A stretch of 21,002 nt of DNA from a virus: IMG/VR virus record IMGVR_UViG_3300034280_001150, positions 1 to 21,002 of that record. One strand, 5' to 3'. Below, piece by piece: positions 2,863-15,740 of this stretch (the first letter of the stretch is position 1; every line of letters begins with the position of its first letter). The notes below the pieces were generated by a model. That model was not told where the DNA came from. It saw only the letters and a program-made list of their open reading frames with translations, and ran no database searches. The translations under genes were made by a program, and so were the position numbers.

Positions 2863-2908
2863 TACCTTGGGGTGGTAGGGGTCGCAGGTTCAAATCCTGT
2901 CGCTCCGA
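2863..2908 (+). other. attP: Probable attP core: 3' half of tRNA-Pro(GGG)
   Basis: The segment reproduces a tRNA from the anticodon arm to the discriminator base. It has anticodon loop TTGGGGT (2867-2873, anticodon GGG) on a stem with one end mismatch, a 5-nt variable loop, T stem GCAGG/CCTGT around TTCAAAT (2889-2895), acceptor strand CGCTCCG (2901-2907) and A2908. No D arm or 5' acceptor strand is found upstream, so this is not a functional tRNA. Tyrosine integrases commonly use the 3' half of a tRNA as the crossover region. After integration the tRNA next to int should be whole, so a half tRNA beside int with phage-like DNA on both sides reads as attP. Confidence 0.7.
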
Positions 2909-2915
2909 TAGACGC

Positions 2916-3029: not shown

Positions 3030-4166
3030 GTGACTCAGAAGAAAGCACCCAAGGGAAGCGTACAGGTCAAAACTACCATCAGTTCTGCGGGGGTGGGGTG
3101 GCTCCGGCTGGTTTGGAGTCACCAGGGCAAAAGATATTTTTTGAGCTTGGGATTGGAGGATAACCCCCTAAATCAGATGGTGGCACAACGGTTGGCTTTG
3201 CAGATTCAAGGGGACTGCGCCACGGGAAACTTTGATAGTTCCCTAACCAAGTACAAGCCACAATCAGAAATGGAAGTTAAACAGGCGACGGTTTCAGTTG
3301 TCGGATTAGTTGAACGGTATTTGAATTACAAGCAACAACAGATTGAATCAGAAACGCTTTATAAATACAATCATTTCTTGCCCAGGATTAAACAATATTT
3401 TGGTAATGATAGCCTGACTGAAAAATCCGCTTTTGGCTTTCGTGATTGGCTGCTACAACACAACGAACCCGCCACAGTTAGGGAAAGAATTGTATTCTTA
3501 AATGCTGTTTATGAGTGGGGTATTAAGAAGCAATTAGTTGAGGTCAATCACTGGACTGAGGTATCGGTAAAAGTTCCCCCAAAAAGAAGATTAAAACCTT
3601 TCTCAATTGAGGAAATCAAACGGATTTTAGAAGGGTTTGCAACGGATCAATATTATTCCCATTTTCTCCCCTACGTTGAGTTTTTACTGGGTACAGGTTG
3701 CCGCCCGGGTGAAGCAAACGGGCTCCAATGGAAACATTTCTCAGAAGACTGTGGAGAGGTTCTAATAGCCTGTAAATTAACGGTATCCGGTGAGCGGAAA
3801 TCGACTAAAACTAATCGTGATCGCTTAATTCCACTTCCCCCTCGCCTTCAAAATATTCTCAAAGCAATCCGTCCGATTGACCCCGACCCGGAGGCTCCGG
3901 TTTTCGTCTCCTTGACTGGATTGCCAATTGATTCCCACAACTTCAGGAATCGGGCATGGAAACAGGTTTTAGCTAAGGTTGGCGTGGAATATAGAAAGCC
4001 CGGAAACTGCCGTCATACTCTGATTTCCCACGGGTTATCACAAGGGAAAAGCCCTGCTGAAATGGCAGAACTCGCAGGGAATAGAATTGAGACTATTTAC
4101 AATAATTATGCTGGGAGCGTGATCCACCGACCATCTTTACCAGTATTGCTCCCAGATGACGAATAA
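3030..4166 (+). CDS. int: Tyrosine-type site-specific recombinase (phage integrase)
   Basis: 378 residues starting at GTG. Order: an N-terminal arm-binding domain (about 1-75, with GWLRLVWSHQGKRYFLSLG resembling the DUF3596-type domain of cyanobacterial integrases), a SAM-like core-binding domain (about 88-185) and a C-terminal catalytic domain. Catalytic residues: Arg225 in GTGCRPGEA, a Lys in the KSTKTNRDR loop (K257 or K260), Arg328 in NCRHT and Tyr360 in IYNNYAG. The two usual His positions are changed: HxxR reads GNCR, and the LGH motif reads AGN (Asn351). The second change recurs in this cyanobacterial integrase group, so it does not imply inactivity. The enzyme would recombine attP (2863-2908) with a host tRNA-Pro gene. 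No Shine-Dalgarno is seen; the start abuts an inverted repeat. Confidence 0.93.
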   Translation: MTQKKAPKGSVQVKTTISSAGVGWLRLVWSHQGKRYFLSLGLEDNPLNQMVAQRLALQIQGDCATGNFDSSLTKYKPQSEMEVKQATVSVVGLVERYLNYKQQQIESETLYKYNHFLPRIKQYFGNDSLTEKSAFGFRDWLLQHNEPATVRERIVFLNAVYEWGIKKQLVEVNHWTEVSVKVPPKRRLKPFSIEEIKRILEGFATDQYYSHFLPYVEFLLGTGCRPGEANGLQWKHFSEDCGEVLIACKLTVSGERKSTKTNRDRLIPLPPRLQNILKAIRPIDPDPEAPVFVSLTGLPIDSHNFRNRAWKQVLAKVGVEYRKPGNCRHTLISHGLSQGKSPAEMAELAGNRIETIYNNYAGSVIHRPSLPVLLPDDE

Positions 4167-4217: not shown

Positions 4218-4415
4218 ATGAGACCCCACGAAAACAGACAAGAGATTAAGGCTAGACTCAAGCCAGAAGATAGAGAAAGGCTTAAAACCCTAGTTGTAGG
4301 CATGGGTTATCGGTACTGGAGACAGGAATCTCCAGAACCCGCATGGACAGAGTTTTTGGAGGCGATCGCAACGGGCGATATAATTCTTTACAAAAAAGTC
4401 GGGGGAGGCGGTTGA
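4218..4415 (+). CDS. Unknown 65-aa protein, possibly RHH-like
   Basis: The sequence runs RLKPEDRERLKTLVVGMG, then EPAWTEFLEAIATGDIIL. A charged first helix followed by a second helix ending near IATGDI resembles short cyanobacterial regulators of the Arc/MetJ type, but the N-terminal strand is not clear. A run of seven T's separates the AGGA element from the ATG. A glycine run (VGGGG) ends the protein. Its stop region contains the -35 box of the next promoter. Confidence 0.55.
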   Translation: MRPHENRQEIKARLKPEDRERLKTLVVGMGYRYWRQESPEPAWTEFLEAIATGDIILYKKVGGGG

Positions 4416-4440
4416 CATTTTGGGATAAGTGGGGTACAGT
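4412..4440 (+). promoter_or_regulatory. Sigma70-type promoter for the gene at 4477
   Basis: TTGACA (4412-4417), a 17-nt spacer, then TACAGT (4435-4440). The -35 box matches consensus fully and overlaps the TGA of the upstream gene. The predicted start of transcription lies about 30 nt before the ATG. Confidence 0.6.
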
Positions 4441-4476
4441 TATAAAAGTAGAAGGTTGAAATAAAGGAACAAGACG

Positions 4477-4707
4477 ATGACCACTCAAACCGAGCCAACT
4501 AAAATTTACTGCGACCGGAAATTTTCACTTTACGACGTAACACCCTGGACAGCCGCAAGGCTGACGAATTTCTTTAACTTGGTTGACGATGGTGAAGACG
4601 TGAAACGTGCCGTCAATGGGTTGAAAACCTGGAAAGGTAGTCAGTCCTACCGCTTGACAATGAGTGACAAAGCTTCGATTGATTACGTTATTGAATGCTA
4701 CGGTTAA
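4477..4707 (+). CDS. Unknown 76-aa protein
   Basis: A clear AAGGA lies 9 nt before the ATG and the gene has its own promoter. The protein is small and soluble (FSLYDVTPWTAARLTNFFNL near the N terminus). No family recognised. A 9-bp hairpin follows the stop. Confidence 0.65.
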   Translation: MTTQTEPTKIYCDRKFSLYDVTPWTAARLTNFFNLVDDGEDVKRAVNGLKTWKGSQSYRLTMSDKASIDYVIECYG

Positions 4708-4785: not shown

Positions 4786-5127
4786 ATGAAAGTTAAAGTC
4801 TATTTCAATCTCCATAAGAGATGTTTTTCGGTAGTCGCCCTTGAAGGTGAAAATAAGGGGCGGGTAATAGCCCACGAAACAGAAGTTAAATTAATAAATG
4901 CTACATTCAAAGTTTCTGAAGCCGGACGGCAACGGGTGATCCGAGAGCAGCGAAAAAATGTCCACGCTTGCGTTGTAGGAACATTGACTGACACAGTGAA
5001 AAACTGTGATCAAGCTGTTACTTACAACCCCTACAAATACAACTCATTTGTATTTAAAAAGGATGAGTCTCCTGTGTTGACAGCTCAAAGTGTTCTACTG
5101 GTCAACAAGCAAATTTTTATCAACTAA
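4786..5127 (+). CDS. Phage-type conserved unknown protein, 113 aa
   Basis: The N-terminal half (VYFNLHKRCFSVVALEG ... GRVIAHETEV ... AGRQRVIREQRKNVHACVVG) has the look of a short protein I associate with many unrelated phages, in which YFNLHK and RKNVHA recur. No function is assigned that I can recall. The C-terminal third (VTYNPYKYNSFVFKKDESPV) continues the beta-rich pattern. It is the first of three genes on one strand with small gaps. No membrane segment. Confidence 0.7.
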   Translation: MKVKVYFNLHKRCFSVVALEGENKGRVIAHETEVKLINATFKVSEAGRQRVIREQRKNVHACVVGTLTDTVKNCDQAVTYNPYKYNSFVFKKDESPVLTAQSVLLVNKQIFIN

Positions 5128-5140
5128 ATAGGAGAATATT

Positions 5141-5647
5141 ATGGTAAGCAAAGAACAGGTCAAACAATCCCTTGAATTGGCATTAAGCCTTAGTCGCTCA
5201 CTGGGGGGACTAACTCAGAAAGAGGCGGCGGGGTTTCTTGAATTGGTTGACGAGATTAACAAAACTTTCAGCAAAACAATCGATCCTGAAGCCCATGAAA
5301 TTAAAGCTGAAATTAAAGCCACTCACCCCATTGATTCTCTGTTAAAAAAAGGTAAAGTTGAGTTACCGCAGGGACGCTACAAACAACTGATTCAGATTCA
5401 TGACGAGCTTTTAGTCCTCAAGATTAAATTCTTGGGTGCGAAGCAAAAGTTTGTCACTCAGATCACATGGTTTCCCCTTGAGTGGAACGGCGACAAATCC
5501 GCCGCGTTGTACTTGTCATCCTCTGAGTGGTCTATCGCTCCCATAAAGTACCGAGATGACAACGATTTGACGGGCGAGTGGGAAGGATTTGATCTTACTG
5601 AGTTCATGAGTATGAACTGCCCAGAGTTTGATCAAGACGAATATTGA
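5141..5647 (+). CDS. Unknown 168-aa protein
   Basis: A good AGGAG lies 7 nt before the ATG. The N-terminal half is helical (KQSLELALSLSRSLGGLTQKE), a proline/lysine linker follows, and the C-terminal part is acidic (ending CPEFDQDEY). No recognised domain. It is probably co-transcribed with the genes at 4786 and 5700. Confidence 0.65.
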   Translation: MVSKEQVKQSLELALSLSRSLGGLTQKEAAGFLELVDEINKTFSKTIDPEAHEIKAEIKATHPIDSLLKKGKVELPQGRYKQLIQIHDELLVLKIKFLGAKQKFVTQITWFPLEWNGDKSAALYLSSSEWSIAPIKYRDDNDLTGEWEGFDLTEFMSMNCPEFDQDEY

Positions 5648-7426: not shown

Positions 7427-7630
7427 ATGACACTAGCAAAAGGACTGAAAATCTCCTCAGACTACAAAAAGGCGGTCGGGGCTTATCGTAGCCAGATGAC
7501 CAATGCTGGTTACGTCCTGAGTACCTTTAATGGTACTGACGTATTTATACACAAGGATTTTCTAGCTTTCGCCAAGAAAGCTGAGATGTATTCGGATTTC
7601 CCCGATGGGGCGATCCTAGAATATGTTTAA
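7427..7630 (+). CDS. Unknown 67-aa protein
   Basis: GAAGGGA lies about 7 nt before the ATG. The protein is small and lysine-rich at the N terminus (MTLAKGLKISSDYKKAVGAY) with an aromatic C-terminal half. No recognised family. A HIP1 octamer begins immediately after its stop. Confidence 0.6.
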   Translation: MTLAKGLKISSDYKKAVGAYRSQMTNAGYVLSTFNGTDVFIHKDFLAFAKKAEMYSDFPDGAILEYV

Positions 7631-7708: not shown

Positions 7709-7954
7709 ATGAGAACATTTGCATTGTTTACAAAAGAATACTGTCCTTTTCGAGTCGGAGAGTGGGTTGAGAAGACTTATACCAGGAAAACAATCTGTTA
7801 TAAATCTGTAACTACAAGAGCGGAAGTCGTTATAGAAACTGAAATCGATCCAAGCCCGTTCGATAGATGGATCGGGGATTATTGTACGATAATCAATTTA
7901 GATGTCAAAACAGAAACACCGTTAATAGACCAACTAGAGAGAGCAAAATCATGA
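7709..7954 (+). CDS. Unknown 81-aa protein coupled to the ring nuclease-like gene
   Basis: A good AAGGAG lies 4 nt before the ATG. Beta-rich, with three cysteines (YCPF, TICYK, DYCT). Its TGA overlaps the ATG of the DUF1874-type gene (ATGA at 7951-7954), so both are made together. There is no helix-turn-helix, so it is not an obvious anti-CRISPR-associated repressor. It may be a partner or a second inhibitor; only the coupling suggests this. Confidence 0.7.
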   Translation: MRTFALFTKEYCPFRVGEWVEKTYTRKTICYKSVTTRAEVVIETEIDPSPFDRWIGDYCTIINLDVKTETPLIDQLERAKS

Positions 7955-8331
7955 TTAAATTACTTTCTGCTATTCCTAACTCCATCCTCTCCCCTGGAGA
8001 TGGGTTTGAAGTATTGGTTTCTTCCCTCTCAGATGAAGATGTTAAAACAGAACTTTCAAAAAACAAATGGGAGTCATGCGTTGGGCATGACTCAACAGCT
8101 AAGTTATTCTCGGAAAAACTCGGATTAGATATTCAATTTAACCGCCAAAATATCATATTGCTTCCGAATGAAGCCTTGATTGTGGGAATGTTTACACCGC
8201 CCCGTCGATTGGGAGAGGGTGAGGTCTGGACGGAAGAAGAAATACTCGCAATGCCCATTAACTGGGTGAGGGTGGTTAAATACCCAAAAGGCTACTTGGT
8301 CGCTGTCCCTTCTGTGGAAGCGATCGTATAA
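7951..8331 (+). CDS. DUF1874 / AcrIII-1-type predicted viral ring nuclease (anti-type III CRISPR)
   Basis: AcrIII-1 proteins (DUF1874) cleave cyclic tetra-adenylate, the alarm molecule of type III CRISPR systems, and so switch off its effectors. In this 126-aa protein residues 42-58 read SCVGHDSTAKLFSEKLG, matching the family signature S-x-[IV]-GH-x-x-T-A-x-x-x-x-x-x-LG. His46 corresponds to the catalytic histidine. It is followed by QFNR (Arg65) and RRLGEGEVWTEEEI (85-98), matching the conserved RLxEGxxLTxEEI segment. The family domain ends near residue 110 (NWVRVVK). The last 13 in-frame residues do not resemble the family and overlap a zinc-ribbon frame. The start is the ATG at 7951, coupled by ATGA to the upstream gene; an open extension to 7867 is ignored. 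Family assignment is by eye; activity is inferred. Confidence 0.8.
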   Translation: MIKLLSAIPNSILSPGDGFEVLVSSLSDEDVKTELSKNKWESCVGHDSTAKLFSEKLGLDIQFNRQNIILLPNEALIVGMFTPPRRLGEGEVWTEEEILAMPINWVRVVKYPKGYLVAVPSVEAIV

Positions 8332-8399
8332 GGAAGTACGGACGCACCGAGTCCAAGAGACAGAGGTGGCATTGCAAAGATTGTGGAAAAATGTTTTAA
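8280..8399 (+). other. Zinc-ribbon reading frame in the -1 frame, possible frameshift extension or relic
   Basis: In the -1 frame relative to the ring nuclease-like gene, the DNA encodes a full four-cysteine zinc ribbon: CPFCGSDRIRKYGRT, then KRQRWHCKDCGKMF and a stop at 8397-8399. This pattern is typical of the N-terminal zinc finger of many transposases and some phage proteins. The open stretch starts after a TAA at 8277-8279 and has no ATG, GTG or TTG, so it cannot be an independent gene. A C-CCA-AAA heptamer (8283-8289) in the ring nuclease frame would allow a -1 slip, giving a fusion of about 149 aa (113 plus 36). Alternatives: an IS remnant, or a one-base indel in an ancestral fusion. 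Confidence 0.6.
8283..8289 (+). promoter_or_regulatory. CCCAAAA slippery heptamer
   Basis: In the zero frame TAC CCA AAA GGC, the heptamer C-CCA-AAA fits X-XXY-YYZ. It lies exactly where the DUF1874-like domain ends and before the -1 frame zinc ribbon. No strong stimulatory stem is evident downstream; only a short CTTC/GAAG hairpin is seen. Confidence 0.45.
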
Positions 8400-8405
8400 A
8401 ATCAA

Positions 8406-8434
8406 CCCCTCTAAATATTTAGAGGGTTATTTTT
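8406..8434. terminator. Bidirectional terminator, copy 1 of a repeated element
   Basis: CCCTCTAAA (8407-8415) and TTTAGAGGG (8418-8426) form a perfect stem with a 2-nt centre, followed by a T-rich tail (8430-8434). It separates the ring nuclease operon from the convergent gene at 8433-8879. Confidence 0.8.
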
Positions 8435-8879
8435 ATTTAGTTGGCTTGGGATTGGTAAGAATGCCTCCTTTTGGGGAACTCTTAAAATACTCACTTTCCA
8501 GTATGTCAAAAATACTTGCCTGTCCATTCTTGTCTCTTGGCAATTCTTTTGGCGGTGGTTTTATAATGTCGTCATCACAAATAAAAACAAGGTTAATTTT
8601 CTCGCCACCATAATAAGACTTAAACGCTTCAGTCAATGCGTTTGAATGGCGATGAGTAGATGCTAGTTCTTTTATAGTAGAGTTACCGATCTTTATAATG
8701 GCAACCCCTTCTACAACAGCTATTAAACGAGTTTGCTGTCTAAAAAGGGCTTTTGTACCCCGTGGCTGCACGTTATCTAATATCGCCTGATAATCAGGAA
8801 AGTGATAGGCTATTTGACCCCCCAGTGCTGTGAGTTCTTTTAGTGCGGATGCGTATCTATCCTTTGTTAGTGAATTCAT
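8433..8879 (-). CDS. Unknown 148-aa protein
   Basis: The N-terminal region is helical (SLTKDRYASALKELTALGG). The centre is beta-rich with RLIAVVEGVAIIKIG, followed by HRHSNALTEAFKSYYGGEK and LVFICDDDIIKPPPKEL. The central pattern suggests an alpha/beta fold, but I recognise no family. No Shine-Dalgarno is seen before the ATG. It is flanked on both sides by copies of the same terminator, so it reads as a self-contained inverted unit, perhaps acquired as a moron. Confidence 0.65.
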   Translation of the reverse strand: MNSLTKDRYASALKELTALGGQIAYHFPDYQAILDNVQPRGTKALFRQQTRLIAVVEGVAIIKIGNSTIKELASTHRHSNALTEAFKSYYGGEKINLVFICDDDIIKPPPKELPRDKNGQASIFDILESEYFKSSPKGGILTNPKPTK

Positions 8880-8907: not shown

Positions 8908-8939
8908 AACCCTCTAAATATTTTAGAGGGTTATTTTTT
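8908..8939 (+). terminator. Terminator-like hairpin, copy 2
   Basis: AACCCTCTAAA (8908-8918) pairs with TTTAGAGGGTT (8922-8932), then ATTTTTT. It lies upstream of the minus-strand gene start and of the plus-strand leader, so here it insulates rather than ends a known gene. Tail TTTTTTGATTAG is shared with copy 3. Confidence 0.7.
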
Positions 8940-13766: not shown

Positions 13767-15740
13767 TTATGCTCCTATTAATCCGTGAGTTGTCAAATCA
13801 TCAATCAACGCTTTTACTCTTTCAGCTAATTGTGGAAGAGTGACGGTTGACGTGGCAAAAGTTGTGCGGGTTGCAGTTCCCGTTGGCGCTACCCATCCGG
13901 TTCTTCTAGTAGAAATAACCTGGGTTGCGTTTAAAGACAAAGCACCTCTGAAAAAGTTATTGGTAATATTTGAATCACCAAAAGACATCGTATTTGAGCC
14001 GTTTCCGGTAGCGTTACAACCAAAAACGTTCTCATTGGTTGCGTTTTGGGTTCCTTTTGTCGATGCACCTATAAAACAAGAGTTGTTGGTAACAGAAATT
14101 TCTGTTACACCGTCAGACTGAAATCTTCCTGCATTATCACCAAAGGCGGAGCAGCTACTACCTGTGGTATTAGCCCTGAGTGAATAAGCACCAAAGGCGG
14201 AGCAGTTAGTGCCTGTGGTATTAGCCTGGAGCGAACCAGCACCAAATGCGGAGCAGTTAACCCCTGTGGTATTAGCCCTGAGTGAACTAACACCAAATGC
14301 GGAGCAGCTACTACCTGTGGTATTAGCCCTGAGTGAATAAGCACCAAAGGCGGAGCAGTTAGTGCCTGTGGTATTAGCCTGGAGCGATTCAACACCAAAG
14401 GCGGAGCAGTTACTACCTGTGGTATTAGCCAGGAGCGAACTAACACCAACGGTCGTATTTGAACTTACCTCCCCTGCTCCCCTCCCGACAGGAATTAGAT
14501 TATAGGAATTAGCACTTATGGTATCCGCAAAAATAGCCCCCGTAATTCCCAAGCTAGCCGCACGAATCGCACCCGTTGTGGGACTGGTAGAAGTTGTTGC
14601 ACTGGTTGAAACTAAGTCACCTGTTACAGTTCCACCGGACAAGGGTAGGTAAGCTGCGGGTAGTCGGGCAGCATTCAAGGTTCCGGTTGAAATATTAGAA
14701 GCATTTAAACTGGTTAATGCTTCTCCAGAGCCAACATAGCCAGTAGCAGTAACTGTTCCTACCACATCAAGTTTAGTAGTAGGTGTAGTTGTACCAATTC
14801 CAAGACTTCCCCCATTCAAATAAGAATTTCCAGAAGCGGTGAGTGAAACAGTTGGTACGTTTACTGAACGAAGGGTCAAAGTTCCGATGTCATTTGTCGC
14901 GCTTGACCCCTGTAACTGAGCAACCGTAAACGCACCATTGGACACAGCAAAACCATTAAATTGATTGCTGCTGACGACAATAGCAACCCCCCCAACATTA
15001 ATAGTATTTGCAAAAATAGCACCCGTAATTCCCAGGGACGCACCACGAATCGCGCCCGTAGTGGTAGAAGTTGATGCAGTGACACTGGTTGAAATCAAGT
15101 CCCCCGTTACTGTCCCACCCGTTAGGGGAAGGTAAGAATTAATATCAATTGAATAAGTCCCGTTCCCTGTTTTCTTGAGAAATCCTGGGGTGTCAGATAA
15201 TGCCTGAATTGCAATTAATTCATTCCCTATACTATTAGTCGAAACCGCAGTTACTTGACCTTTGGCGTTAACAGTGACAACAGGAATAGCACTGACACTA
15301 CCAAAACTGCCAACATTGCTATTGACTGTCTGCAACGTCATCACACCCGAAACGTCAGCACTCCCATCGAAACCACTAATCGAACCAGTTATATCCCCCG
15401 TCGTTGAAATTGTCCGGGCATTTGTTAGTTTTAACGCCTCCCCCGCCGTTGCCGAGCTTGATATTTCAACATAAACAGAACCCGACCATCGGTAGGTTTT
15501 GTTGTTATCTTCGGTGACATAAATTTTGCCAGTCTCACCCGCAACCGGAAACGTTGCAAGGTTAGCAAAATTCAAGACATCATCAACATAGGATGGCAAA
15601 ACCGATGCTGAAATTGTGCCAGTCGCGGCGTTAACAGCCGTTAAGATTGTATTATTGGAAGTTAATGATTTTGTGAAACTGGCAACCGTTGGATCGGTTT
15701 CAGCTGTAATCACATTCCTAATTAATTGTCCAACGCCCAT
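13767..15740 (-). CDS. Tail-fibre-like / trimeric adhesin-like virion protein
   Basis: 657 aa, rich in Thr, Ser, Gly and Asn and poor in charged residues, as in trimeric beta-structured fibres. Residues 62-93 (GETGKIYVTEDNNKTYRWSG) form a segment common in phage fibres. A block of about 45 residues is duplicated (203-247 and 364-408, both with GGTVTGDL and SLGITGAIFA). Residues 435-536 are six 17-residue repeats of the type SLxANTTGxNCSAFGxx, like the head repeats of YadA-type adhesins. The C terminus (LPQLAERVKALIDDLTTHGL) is a helix I associate with cyanobacterial and cyanophage fibres. GGGGG precedes the ATG. It should mediate host recognition. A Cys in every repeat is unusual for an extracellular fibre. 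Confidence 0.85.
   Translation of the reverse strand: MGVGQLIRNVITAETDPTVASFTKSLTSNNTILTAVNAATGTISASVLPSYVDDVLNFANLATFPVAGETGKIYVTEDNNKTYRWSGSVYVEISSSATAGEALKLTNARTISTTGDITGSISGFDGSADVSGVMTLQTVNSNVGSFGSVSAIPVVTVNAKGQVTAVSTNSIGNELIAIQALSDTPGFLKKTGNGTYSIDINSYLPLTGGTVTGDLISTSVTASTSTTTGAIRGASLGITGAIFANTINVGGVAIVVSSNQFNGFAVSNGAFTVAQLQGSSATNDIGTLTLRSVNVPTVSLTASGNSYLNGGSLGIGTTTPTTKLDVVGTVTATGYVGSGEALTSLNASNISTGTLNAARLPAAYLPLSGGTVTGDLVSTSATTSTSPTTGAIRAASLGITGAIFADTISANSYNLIPVGRGAGEVSSNTTVGVSSLLANTTGSNCSAFGVESLQANTTGTNCSAFGAYSLRANTTGSSCSAFGVSSLRANTTGVNCSAFGAGSLQANTTGTNCSAFGAYSLRANTTGSSCSAFGDNAGRFQSDGVTEISVTNNSCFIGASTKGTQNATNENVFGCNATGNGSNTMSFGDSNITNNFFRGALSLNATQVISTRRTGWVAPTGTATRTTFATSTVTLPQLAERVKALIDDLTTHGLIGA
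14133..14438 (-). repeat. Six 51-bp tandem repeats inside the tail-fibre gene
   Basis: Each unit encodes 17 residues (SLxANTTGxNCSAFGxx). Units 2 and 5 are almost identical, as are 3 and 6, so the array probably grew by doubling a three-unit block. Recombination could change repeat number and thus fibre length. Confidence 0.85.

What the first reader, a model, noticed from the sequence alone, without database searches (positions are those of the whole stretch)
7951..8331. Predicted viral ring nuclease (AcrIII-1 / DUF1874) in a cyanophage
Seen: SCVGHDSTAKLFSEKLG with His46, then QFNR and RRLGEGEVWTEEEI, in a 126-aa protein coupled to a small unknown gene. Known: DUF1874 / AcrIII-1 proteins degrade cyclic tetra-adenylate and block type III CRISPR immunity. 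Inference: this phage counters a cA4-based type III system, common in filamentous and colonial cyanobacteria. The coupled 81-aa gene at 7709 may belong to the same function.
Basis: partly seen in the sequence, partly recalled or inferred. Interest (0 to 1): 0.85.

Follow-up and report, generated by a model that had tools for sequence, protein, structure and literature searches.

The report
Viral CRISPR-signal-destroying enzyme in a cyanophage
A temperate virus of cyanobacteria carries a small gene that is almost certainly a ring nuclease of the AcrIII-1 family, an enzyme that destroys the alarm molecule of type III CRISPR immunity; it is a new member of a known kind, notable because sister viruses have lost or never gained it and because its nearest isolated relatives are phages of bloom-forming Microcystis.

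Summary
The ORF at 7951-8331 (126 aa, His46) passes Pfam STIV_B116-like (PF08960/DUF1874) at E 3e-11. Its AlphaFold model (pLDDT 87.5) has as best PDB match the AcrIII-1 entry 6SCF. H46 aligns with the catalytic histidines tested in SIRV1 gp29 (H47) and Csx1-Crn2 (H495), and the other near-invariant family residues are kept except N6 (Ser here). It is therefore an AcrIII-1/Crn2-family protein, most likely a cA4-degrading anti-CRISPR. The host is a cyanobacterium (HIP1 sites 6 against 0.09 expected; attP equal to the 3' half of cyanobacterial tRNA-Pro beside an integrase). The four genomes with the best attB matches carry type III-B Cas10 with CARF-HEPN effector genes beside it. New context: the gene and its coupled 81-aa orphan form a cassette absent from four sister phages and reduced to a 3' relic in a fifth. 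The closest isolated relatives are five Microcystis MaMV phages; MaMV-DC and LMM01 lack the gene at that site. The MaMV host has III-B/Csx1 systems with spacers against MaMVs (PMC11855584). No activity was measured. The 81-aa partner remains unexplained.

The parts
7951..8331 (+). AcrIII-1 / DUF1874 (PF08960) ring nuclease homologue, 126 aa, predicted catalytic His46
   Evidence: Pfam E 3.1e-11; PDB phmmer 2j6b, 2x4i, 6scf, 8y6z; profile hmmsearch; AlphaFold plus Foldseek best hit 6scf
8074..8145 (+). core motif S42-C-V-G-H46-x2-T-A-x3-S-x2-L-G-x5-N-R65
   Evidence: P0001 residues 42-65; invariant columns of alignments A1, A5, A6. Most of these positions were also in the DNA search pattern, so their 100% conservation in the pattern-derived set is partly by construction
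8206..8220 (+). second motif R86-L-G-E89-G90 (equivalent of R85 and E88 of SIRV1 gp29)
   Evidence: not used in the search pattern, yet R 97%, E 91%, G 94% in 155 members; alignment
7709..7954 (+). 81-aa orphan ORF, overlaps the acr start by 4 bases (ATGA); absent together with acr in sister phages; function unknown
   Evidence: no family or homologue; single-sequence model unreliable, pLDDT 48.7
8286..8399 (+). out-of-frame relic of an IS1595-type transposase zinc ribbon (RCPFCGSDRIRKYGRTESKRQRWHCKDCGKMF*), overlapping the last ~15 codons of acr
   Evidence: Pfam Zn_ribbon_IS1595 28.6 bits, cut-off 25.4; explains the C-terminal extension that homologues lack
8404..8434 (.). hairpin terminator-like element at the right boundary of the cassette; further copies at 8908 and 9913
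   Evidence: shared by L007, L008, L009 at the empty or altered site
7427..7630 (+). 67-aa conserved gene at the left boundary of the cassette
   Evidence: 91-94% identical in L007-L011
8433..8879 (-). 148-aa conserved gene at the right boundary; stand-alone relative of a C-terminal domain of cyanobacterial DnaX
2863..2909 (+). attP core, 47/47 identical to the 3' half of cyanobacterial tRNA-Pro(ggg)
   Evidence: no complete tRNA in the window
3030..4166 (+). tyrosine integrase beside attP
   Evidence: PF00589 and Arm-DNA-bind_2, PHROG integrase

Best explanation
The gene is a phage-encoded AcrIII-1 ring nuclease. The protein most likely forms the family's dimer, binds cyclic tetra-adenylate (cA4) made by Cas10 of a host type III CRISPR complex, and uses His46 of each subunit to cut it into linear di-adenylates, so that cA4-activated effectors such as Csx1 are not switched on and the infected or lysogenised cyanobacterium fails to clear the phage. 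Family membership, the kept catalytic residues, the fold and the cyanophage location are shown here. Dimerisation, cA4 cleavage and immune suppression are inferred from characterised relatives. The gene sits in a small exchangeable cassette that is gained and lost among closely related phages, as expected for an accessory counter-defence gene.
For: Profile hit above the curated cut-off; PHROG 5063; sequence hits to SIRV1 AcrIII-1, AFV3-109, STIV B116 and Csx1-Crn2 with H46 aligned to catalytic H47/H495 (PMC7213978, PMC7293037); profile hmmsearch to the same solved structures, E down to 3e-37. AlphaFold pLDDT 87.5, pTM 0.80, and Foldseek ranks 6SCF first (E 1.8e-9, TM 0.71-0.80), with no other fold below E 1. 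Of 155 non-redundant relatives, R86, E89 and G90 are 91-97% conserved and present here. Grouped in the tree with the Microcystis phage clade, support 94/98. Host side: HIP1 and attP; Cas10 in 91/386 cyanobacterial genomes; III-B with CARF-HEPN effector genes in the four best attB genomes. The family is rare in cyanobacterial chromosomes, 2 of 386 above cut-off, both in phage-like surroundings. Cassette absence or relic in sister phages and absence in MaMV-DC and LMM01.
Against: No biochemistry. The near-invariant N6 (83% N plus 12% gaps in 155 members; at least 90%) is Ser here, although an Asn follows at position 10; Q81 of SIRV1 gp29 aligns with a Gly. Overall identity to characterised enzymes is only about 20-30%. 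The host is not identified and no spacer match to this phage was demonstrated. The dimer was not modelled.
Confidence: 0.83

Rival explanations
1. The protein belongs to the family but acts as a cA4 sponge or a slow enzyme, or acts on another cyclic nucleotide of a different defence system; it keeps the fold but not fast cA4 cleavage.
For: N6 is replaced by Ser and the Q81 equivalent is Gly; the cyanophage clade sits on a long branch (1.1 changes per column); the family also occurs in many bacteria for which no type III system was checked here.
Against: The catalytic His and the Arg/Glu residues equivalent to H47, R66, R85 and E88 are kept; characterised relatives with these residues, including the bacterial Csx1-Crn2, are fast cA4 enzymes (PMC7293037).
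Confidence: 0.1
2. It works as a Crn2-type regulator: in the prophage it limits self-harm from the host's own type III signalling, or protects the lysogen, rather than acting mainly as an anti-CRISPR during infection.
For: The phage is temperate (integrase plus attP); Crn2 homologues occur beside type III loci and in a Csx1 fusion (PMC7293037, PMC12409355).
Against: The genes identified in this 21-kb window are phage genes, and the four sister phages that lack it look otherwise normal at the site. The same chemistry serves both roles, so this rival differs in timing and beneficiary, not in mechanism. Lytic Microcystis phages carry the nearest relatives (PMC9927357).
Confidence: 0.05
3. It is a decayed or non-functional gene: the C-terminus runs out of frame into a transposase relic and the cassette is on its way out, as in L009.
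For: The last ~15 residues overlap an out-of-frame IS1595 zinc-ribbon relic and are poorly predicted (pLDDT 50-73); a relic of acr codons 101-126 remains in L009.
Against: The whole PF08960 domain (residues 1-110) is open, with every catalytic-type residue intact and a confident fold; the extension lies outside the domain.
Confidence: 0.02

Closest known systems
AcrIII-1 of Sulfolobus islandicus rudivirus 1 (SIRV1 gp29; PDB 2X4I, 6SCF)
   Same: same Pfam family and predicted fold; H46 = H47, R65 = R66, R86 = R85, E89 = E88, S48 = S49 in the alignment; best Foldseek match
   Different: about 20-22% identity; bacterial phage rather than archaeal virus; Ser in place of the family Asn at position 6; C-terminal extension; activity untested
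AFV3-109 of an Acidianus filamentous virus (PDB 2J6B)
   Same: best single-sequence PDB match, E 1.4e-7; same fold
   Different: archaeal virus; about 24% identity
Crn2 domain of Csx1-Crn2, Marinitoga (PDB 8Y6Z, 8Y7F, 8Y7G)
   Same: H46 = H495, shown essential for cA4 cleavage (PMC7293037); same fold
   Different: fused to a host Csx1 effector; here stand-alone in a phage
Unannotated homologues in Microcystis phages MaMV-DH01, CH01, CH02, DL01, DL02 (e.g. UWV19715.1)
   Same: closest named relatives, 39.5% identity over residues 1-108; shared features such as PRRLxEGExW; grouped in the tree 94/98
   Different: large lytic myophages; no 81-aa partner seen; no C-terminal extension
Csx16 / other ring nucleases (PADLOC model PDLC01147)
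   Same: PADLOC's model named Csx16 also hits, E 2.9e-9; Csx16 is reported as structurally related to 2J6B (PMC12409355)
   Different: Pfam and PDB place it in STIV_B116-like/DUF1874; no other Pfam family scored at E <= 1 and NCBIfam gave no Csx16 hit

Membership tests
AcrIII-1 / Crn2 (DUF1874, PF08960) | significant match to the family profile | tested here: met
   43.7 bits, cut-off 26, residues 23-102, profile 19-98 of 101
AcrIII-1 / Crn2 (DUF1874, PF08960) | catalytic histidine in a GH..T motif, equivalent to H47 of SIRV1 gp29 and H495 of Csx1-Crn2 | tested here: met
   H46 aligned with both
AcrIII-1 / Crn2 (DUF1874, PF08960) | conserved NR and R..EG positions (R66, R85, E88; their contact with cA4 is recalled, not verified here) | tested here: met
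   N64-R65, R86, E89, G90
AcrIII-1 / Crn2 (DUF1874, PF08960) | Asn in the N-terminal L-N-[AST] motif (common rather than defining) | tested here: not met
   S6 in P0001; N in 83% of 155 members with 12% gaps and at least 90% in A5. An Asn occurs at position 10; I know of no paper that makes this residue a criterion of the family
AcrIII-1 / Crn2 (DUF1874, PF08960) | AcrIII-1 fold | tested here: met
   AlphaFold pLDDT 87.5; Foldseek 6scf E 1.8e-9, TM 0.71-0.80; no unrelated fold below E 1
AcrIII-1 / Crn2 (DUF1874, PF08960) | dimer with the cA4 site at the interface | not testable with these tools
   only monomer prediction available
AcrIII-1 / Crn2 (DUF1874, PF08960) | rapid cleavage of cA4 | not testable with these tools
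   needs biochemistry
AcrIII-1 (viral, as opposed to CRISPR-associated Crn2) | encoded by a virus and not by a type III CRISPR locus | tested here: met
   IMG/VR virus record with terminase, integrase and attP; the identified genes include no cas gene, though not every small ORF was scanned
AcrIII-1 (viral) | inhibits type III CRISPR immunity | not testable with these tools
   needs infection assays
Csx16 ring nuclease | match to a Csx16 family model | tested here: inconclusive
   PADLOC model named Csx16 hits E 2.9e-9; no other Pfam family than PF08960 at E <= 1 and no NCBIfam Csx16 hit; that model may itself cover DUF1874-like proteins

The most novel reading that the evidence does not exclude
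The 81-aa orphan and the ring nuclease form a two-gene counter-defence operon in which the orphan is itself a new anti-defence protein or a regulator of the ring nuclease, carried as an exchangeable cassette at a counter-defence locus of temperate cyanophages whose alternative occupant (the 71-aa ORF of L002/L009) is another such protein.
Probability: 0.2. Interest if true: 0.55.

Novelty: new member of a known kind. Interest (0 to 1): 0.42.

Why it matters
AcrIII-1 was defined on archaeal viruses and is known from some phages; I found no paper in the library that names one in a cyanophage. Cyanobacteria often carry type III systems, and Synechocystis Csx1 is a cA4-dependent RNase (PMC9676260). 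In Microcystis aeruginosa FACHB-524 two III-B systems, whose clusters carry Csx1, have spacers against MaMV phages that nevertheless infect it (PMC11855584); five MaMV isolates turn out to encode an AcrIII-1 homologue, while MaMV-DC, also targeted, lacks it at that site. This gives a ready natural comparison for how bloom phages escape type III immunity, and shows the gene coming and going in two unrelated cyanophage lineages.

Tried and rejected
A pattern with a variable gap was not accepted. The host was sought by matching the window DNA to 386 cyanobacterial genomes: this gave the tRNA attachment site, not spacers; each genome shows only its top matches there, so spacer matches are not excluded. 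The 81-aa gene: no Pfam, PHROG or NCBIfam family, no viral relative, no phage match, and a model too poor to interpret. A full-length zinc-ribbon gene was considered for 8286-8399 and rejected: no start codon, and upstream stops in that frame in the window and in the same DNA of L009. NCBIfam gave only a chance hit for P0001. Mis-filing as Csx16 was considered because of the PADLOC name and not adopted.

Full report
Observation. It starts inside the end of the 81-aa ORF 7709-7954 (ATGA overlap).

Identity. Pfam assigns it to STIV_B116-like (PF08960, formerly DUF1874) at E 3.1e-11 and 43.7 bits against a cut-off of 26; PHROGs gives family 5063. Against solved structures, phmmer finds AFV3-109, SIRV1 ORF114/gp29 (2x4i and 6scf), STIV B116 and the Marinitoga Csx1-Crn2 fusion and nothing else; a profile from 37 relatives finds the same set with E-values down to 3e-37 plus one marginal unrelated chain. 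In the pairwise alignments H46 falls on H47 of SIRV1 gp29 and on H495 of Csx1-Crn2. The H47A variant is described as inactive in PMC7213978, and H495A does not degrade cA4 in PMC7293037. R65, R86, E89 and S48 fall on R66, R85, E88 and S49; that these contact cA4 is my recollection of the original structure paper, which is not in the library.

Family survey. A degenerate DNA pattern for S-x-[VIL]-G-H-x2-T-A...S-x2-L-G-x5-N-R gave 57 stretches in genomes and 113 in viral contigs; with the loci already held, 177 protein rows were read. Positions in the pattern are conserved by construction, but R86 (97%), E89 (91%) and G90 (94%) were not in it and are present here. The one departure is S6, where most members have Asn. 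In a tree of 156 sequences the protein joins the Microcystis phage sequences with support 94/98 on a long branch; with so few columns the deeper branching is not reliable.

Structure. AlphaFold on a 37-row alignment gives pLDDT 87.5 and pTM 0.80; only the last ~15 residues are poor. Foldseek against the PDB puts 6SCF (AcrIII-1) first, E 1.8e-9, TM 0.71-0.80 for the AcrIII-1 chains; the 17 matches with E below 1 are all family members. The dimer could not be modelled.

Phage and host. The record is an IMG/VR virus contig of 21,002 bases, probably a fragment. It has a large terminase, integrase, Bro-N antirepressor, methyltransferases and thymidylate kinase. HIP1 octamers occur 6 times against 0.09 expected. 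Bases 2863-2909 are 47/47 identical to the 3' half of tRNA-Pro(ggg) genes in two cyanobacterial genomes, next to the integrase gene: an attP site, so the phage is temperate. Because tRNA genes are conserved, this fixes the phylum but not the species. Cas10 palm domains were found in 91 of 386 sampled cyanobacterial genomes, including all four with the best attB match. Reading their loci shows type III-B Cas10 with CARF-HEPN (Csx1/Csm6-type) proteins beside it in all four (the one in G263 is a weaker match). PF08960 itself is rare in cyanobacterial chromosomes: 2 of 386 above cut-off, both beside genes of phage type, which I judged by eye.

Cassette dynamics. Five sister contigs carry the flanking 67-aa and 148-aa genes at about 90% identity or more. 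In L007, L008, L010 and L011 the two genes are joined by about 70-230 bases without acr or the 81-aa gene; in L009 (same contig as L002) another 71-aa ORF stands there and only acr codons 101-126 survive, 96% identical. Since codons 101-110 belong to the family domain (MaMV ends ..INYILVK), the L009 sequence is best read as the remnant of an acr that was once there. The same pattern holds in unrelated Microcystis myophages: five MaMV isolates have the gene, whereas in MaMV-DC and LMM01 both flanks are present, similarity stops at the acr start codon, and the gene is missing. Repeated hairpin terminators (8404, 8908, 9913) may help such exchange; that is inference.

C-terminal extension. Residues after about 110 have no counterpart in homologues. 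They are read from DNA that, in another frame, encodes RCPFCGSDRIRKYGRTESKRQRWHCKDCGKMF*, an IS1595-type transposase zinc ribbon, so the acr reading frame runs into a transposase relic. This probably does not touch the enzyme, but it marks past mobile-element activity at the cassette.

Mechanism. The best-supported account is cA4 destruction by His46 in a dimer, blocking cA4-activated effectors. Cyanobacterial relevance is documented: Synechocystis Csx1 is a cA4-dependent RNase (PMC9676260), and the MaMV host FACHB-524 has III-B systems whose spacers match MaMVs, with Csx1 adding about tenfold protection in E. coli (PMC11855584). That paper's only anti-CRISPR mention is in its reference list, and the MaMV-DH01 genome paper does not mention CRISPR. 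A survey of ring nucleases found AcrIII-1 in 36 of 28,114 phage genomes (PMC12409355); its table was not readable here, so some MaMVs may already be in it.

Verdict. A genuine AcrIII-1 family member in a temperate cyanophage: new member of a known kind, with useful new context. Activity and the role of the 81-aa partner remain to be shown.

Noticed in passing
window 8286-8399 (+): Out-of-frame relic of an IS1595-type transposase zinc ribbon overlaps the 3' end of acr and has no start codon; also present in L009.
   Followed up: yes
window 8433-8879 (-): 148-aa protein resembling a C-terminal domain of cyanobacterial DnaX (gamma/tau), here as a stand-alone phage gene conserved among sister phages; it may touch the host replisome.
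   Followed up: partly
window 2863-2909: attP core identical to the 3' half of cyanobacterial tRNA-Pro(ggg), beside the integrase at 3030-4166.
   Followed up: yes
window 8404, 8908, 9913: Nearly identical hairpin terminator elements (AACCCTCTAAATATTTAGAGGGTT + T-run) in three intergenic places, also in sister phages; possible sites of cassette exchange.
   Followed up: partly
L002/L009, 71-aa ORF at L002:1826-2041: Orphan ORF that replaces the 5' part of acr in a sister phage; candidate alternative counter-defence gene, no family match.
   Followed up: partly
L010 and L011, about 5205-5260: The empty site carries a T-arm-like sequence (CACGGTTCGACTCCGTG) like the 3' end of a tRNA; L008 has it too.
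   Followed up: no
L003:2974-3324 (MaMV-DH01), L231 (MaMV-DC), L232 (LMM01): Microcystis phages differ by presence or absence of the AcrIII-1 homologue at one site; the gene is annotated hypothetical.
   Followed up: yes
window 13767-15740 (-): Repeated units (TTGSNCSAFG-like) in a 657-aa ORF of structural-protein type.
   Followed up: no
window 4786-5127 (+): 113-aa ORF matching Pfam Phage_L5_gp82 strongly (E 5.6e-43), a family named after a mycobacteriophage L5 protein.
   Followed up: no
L065 (Leptolyngbya sp. PCC 7375), 4293-4619 (-): A second, distant DUF1874 protein in a cyanobacterial chromosome, in phage-like surroundings, in a different branch of the tree.
   Followed up: partly
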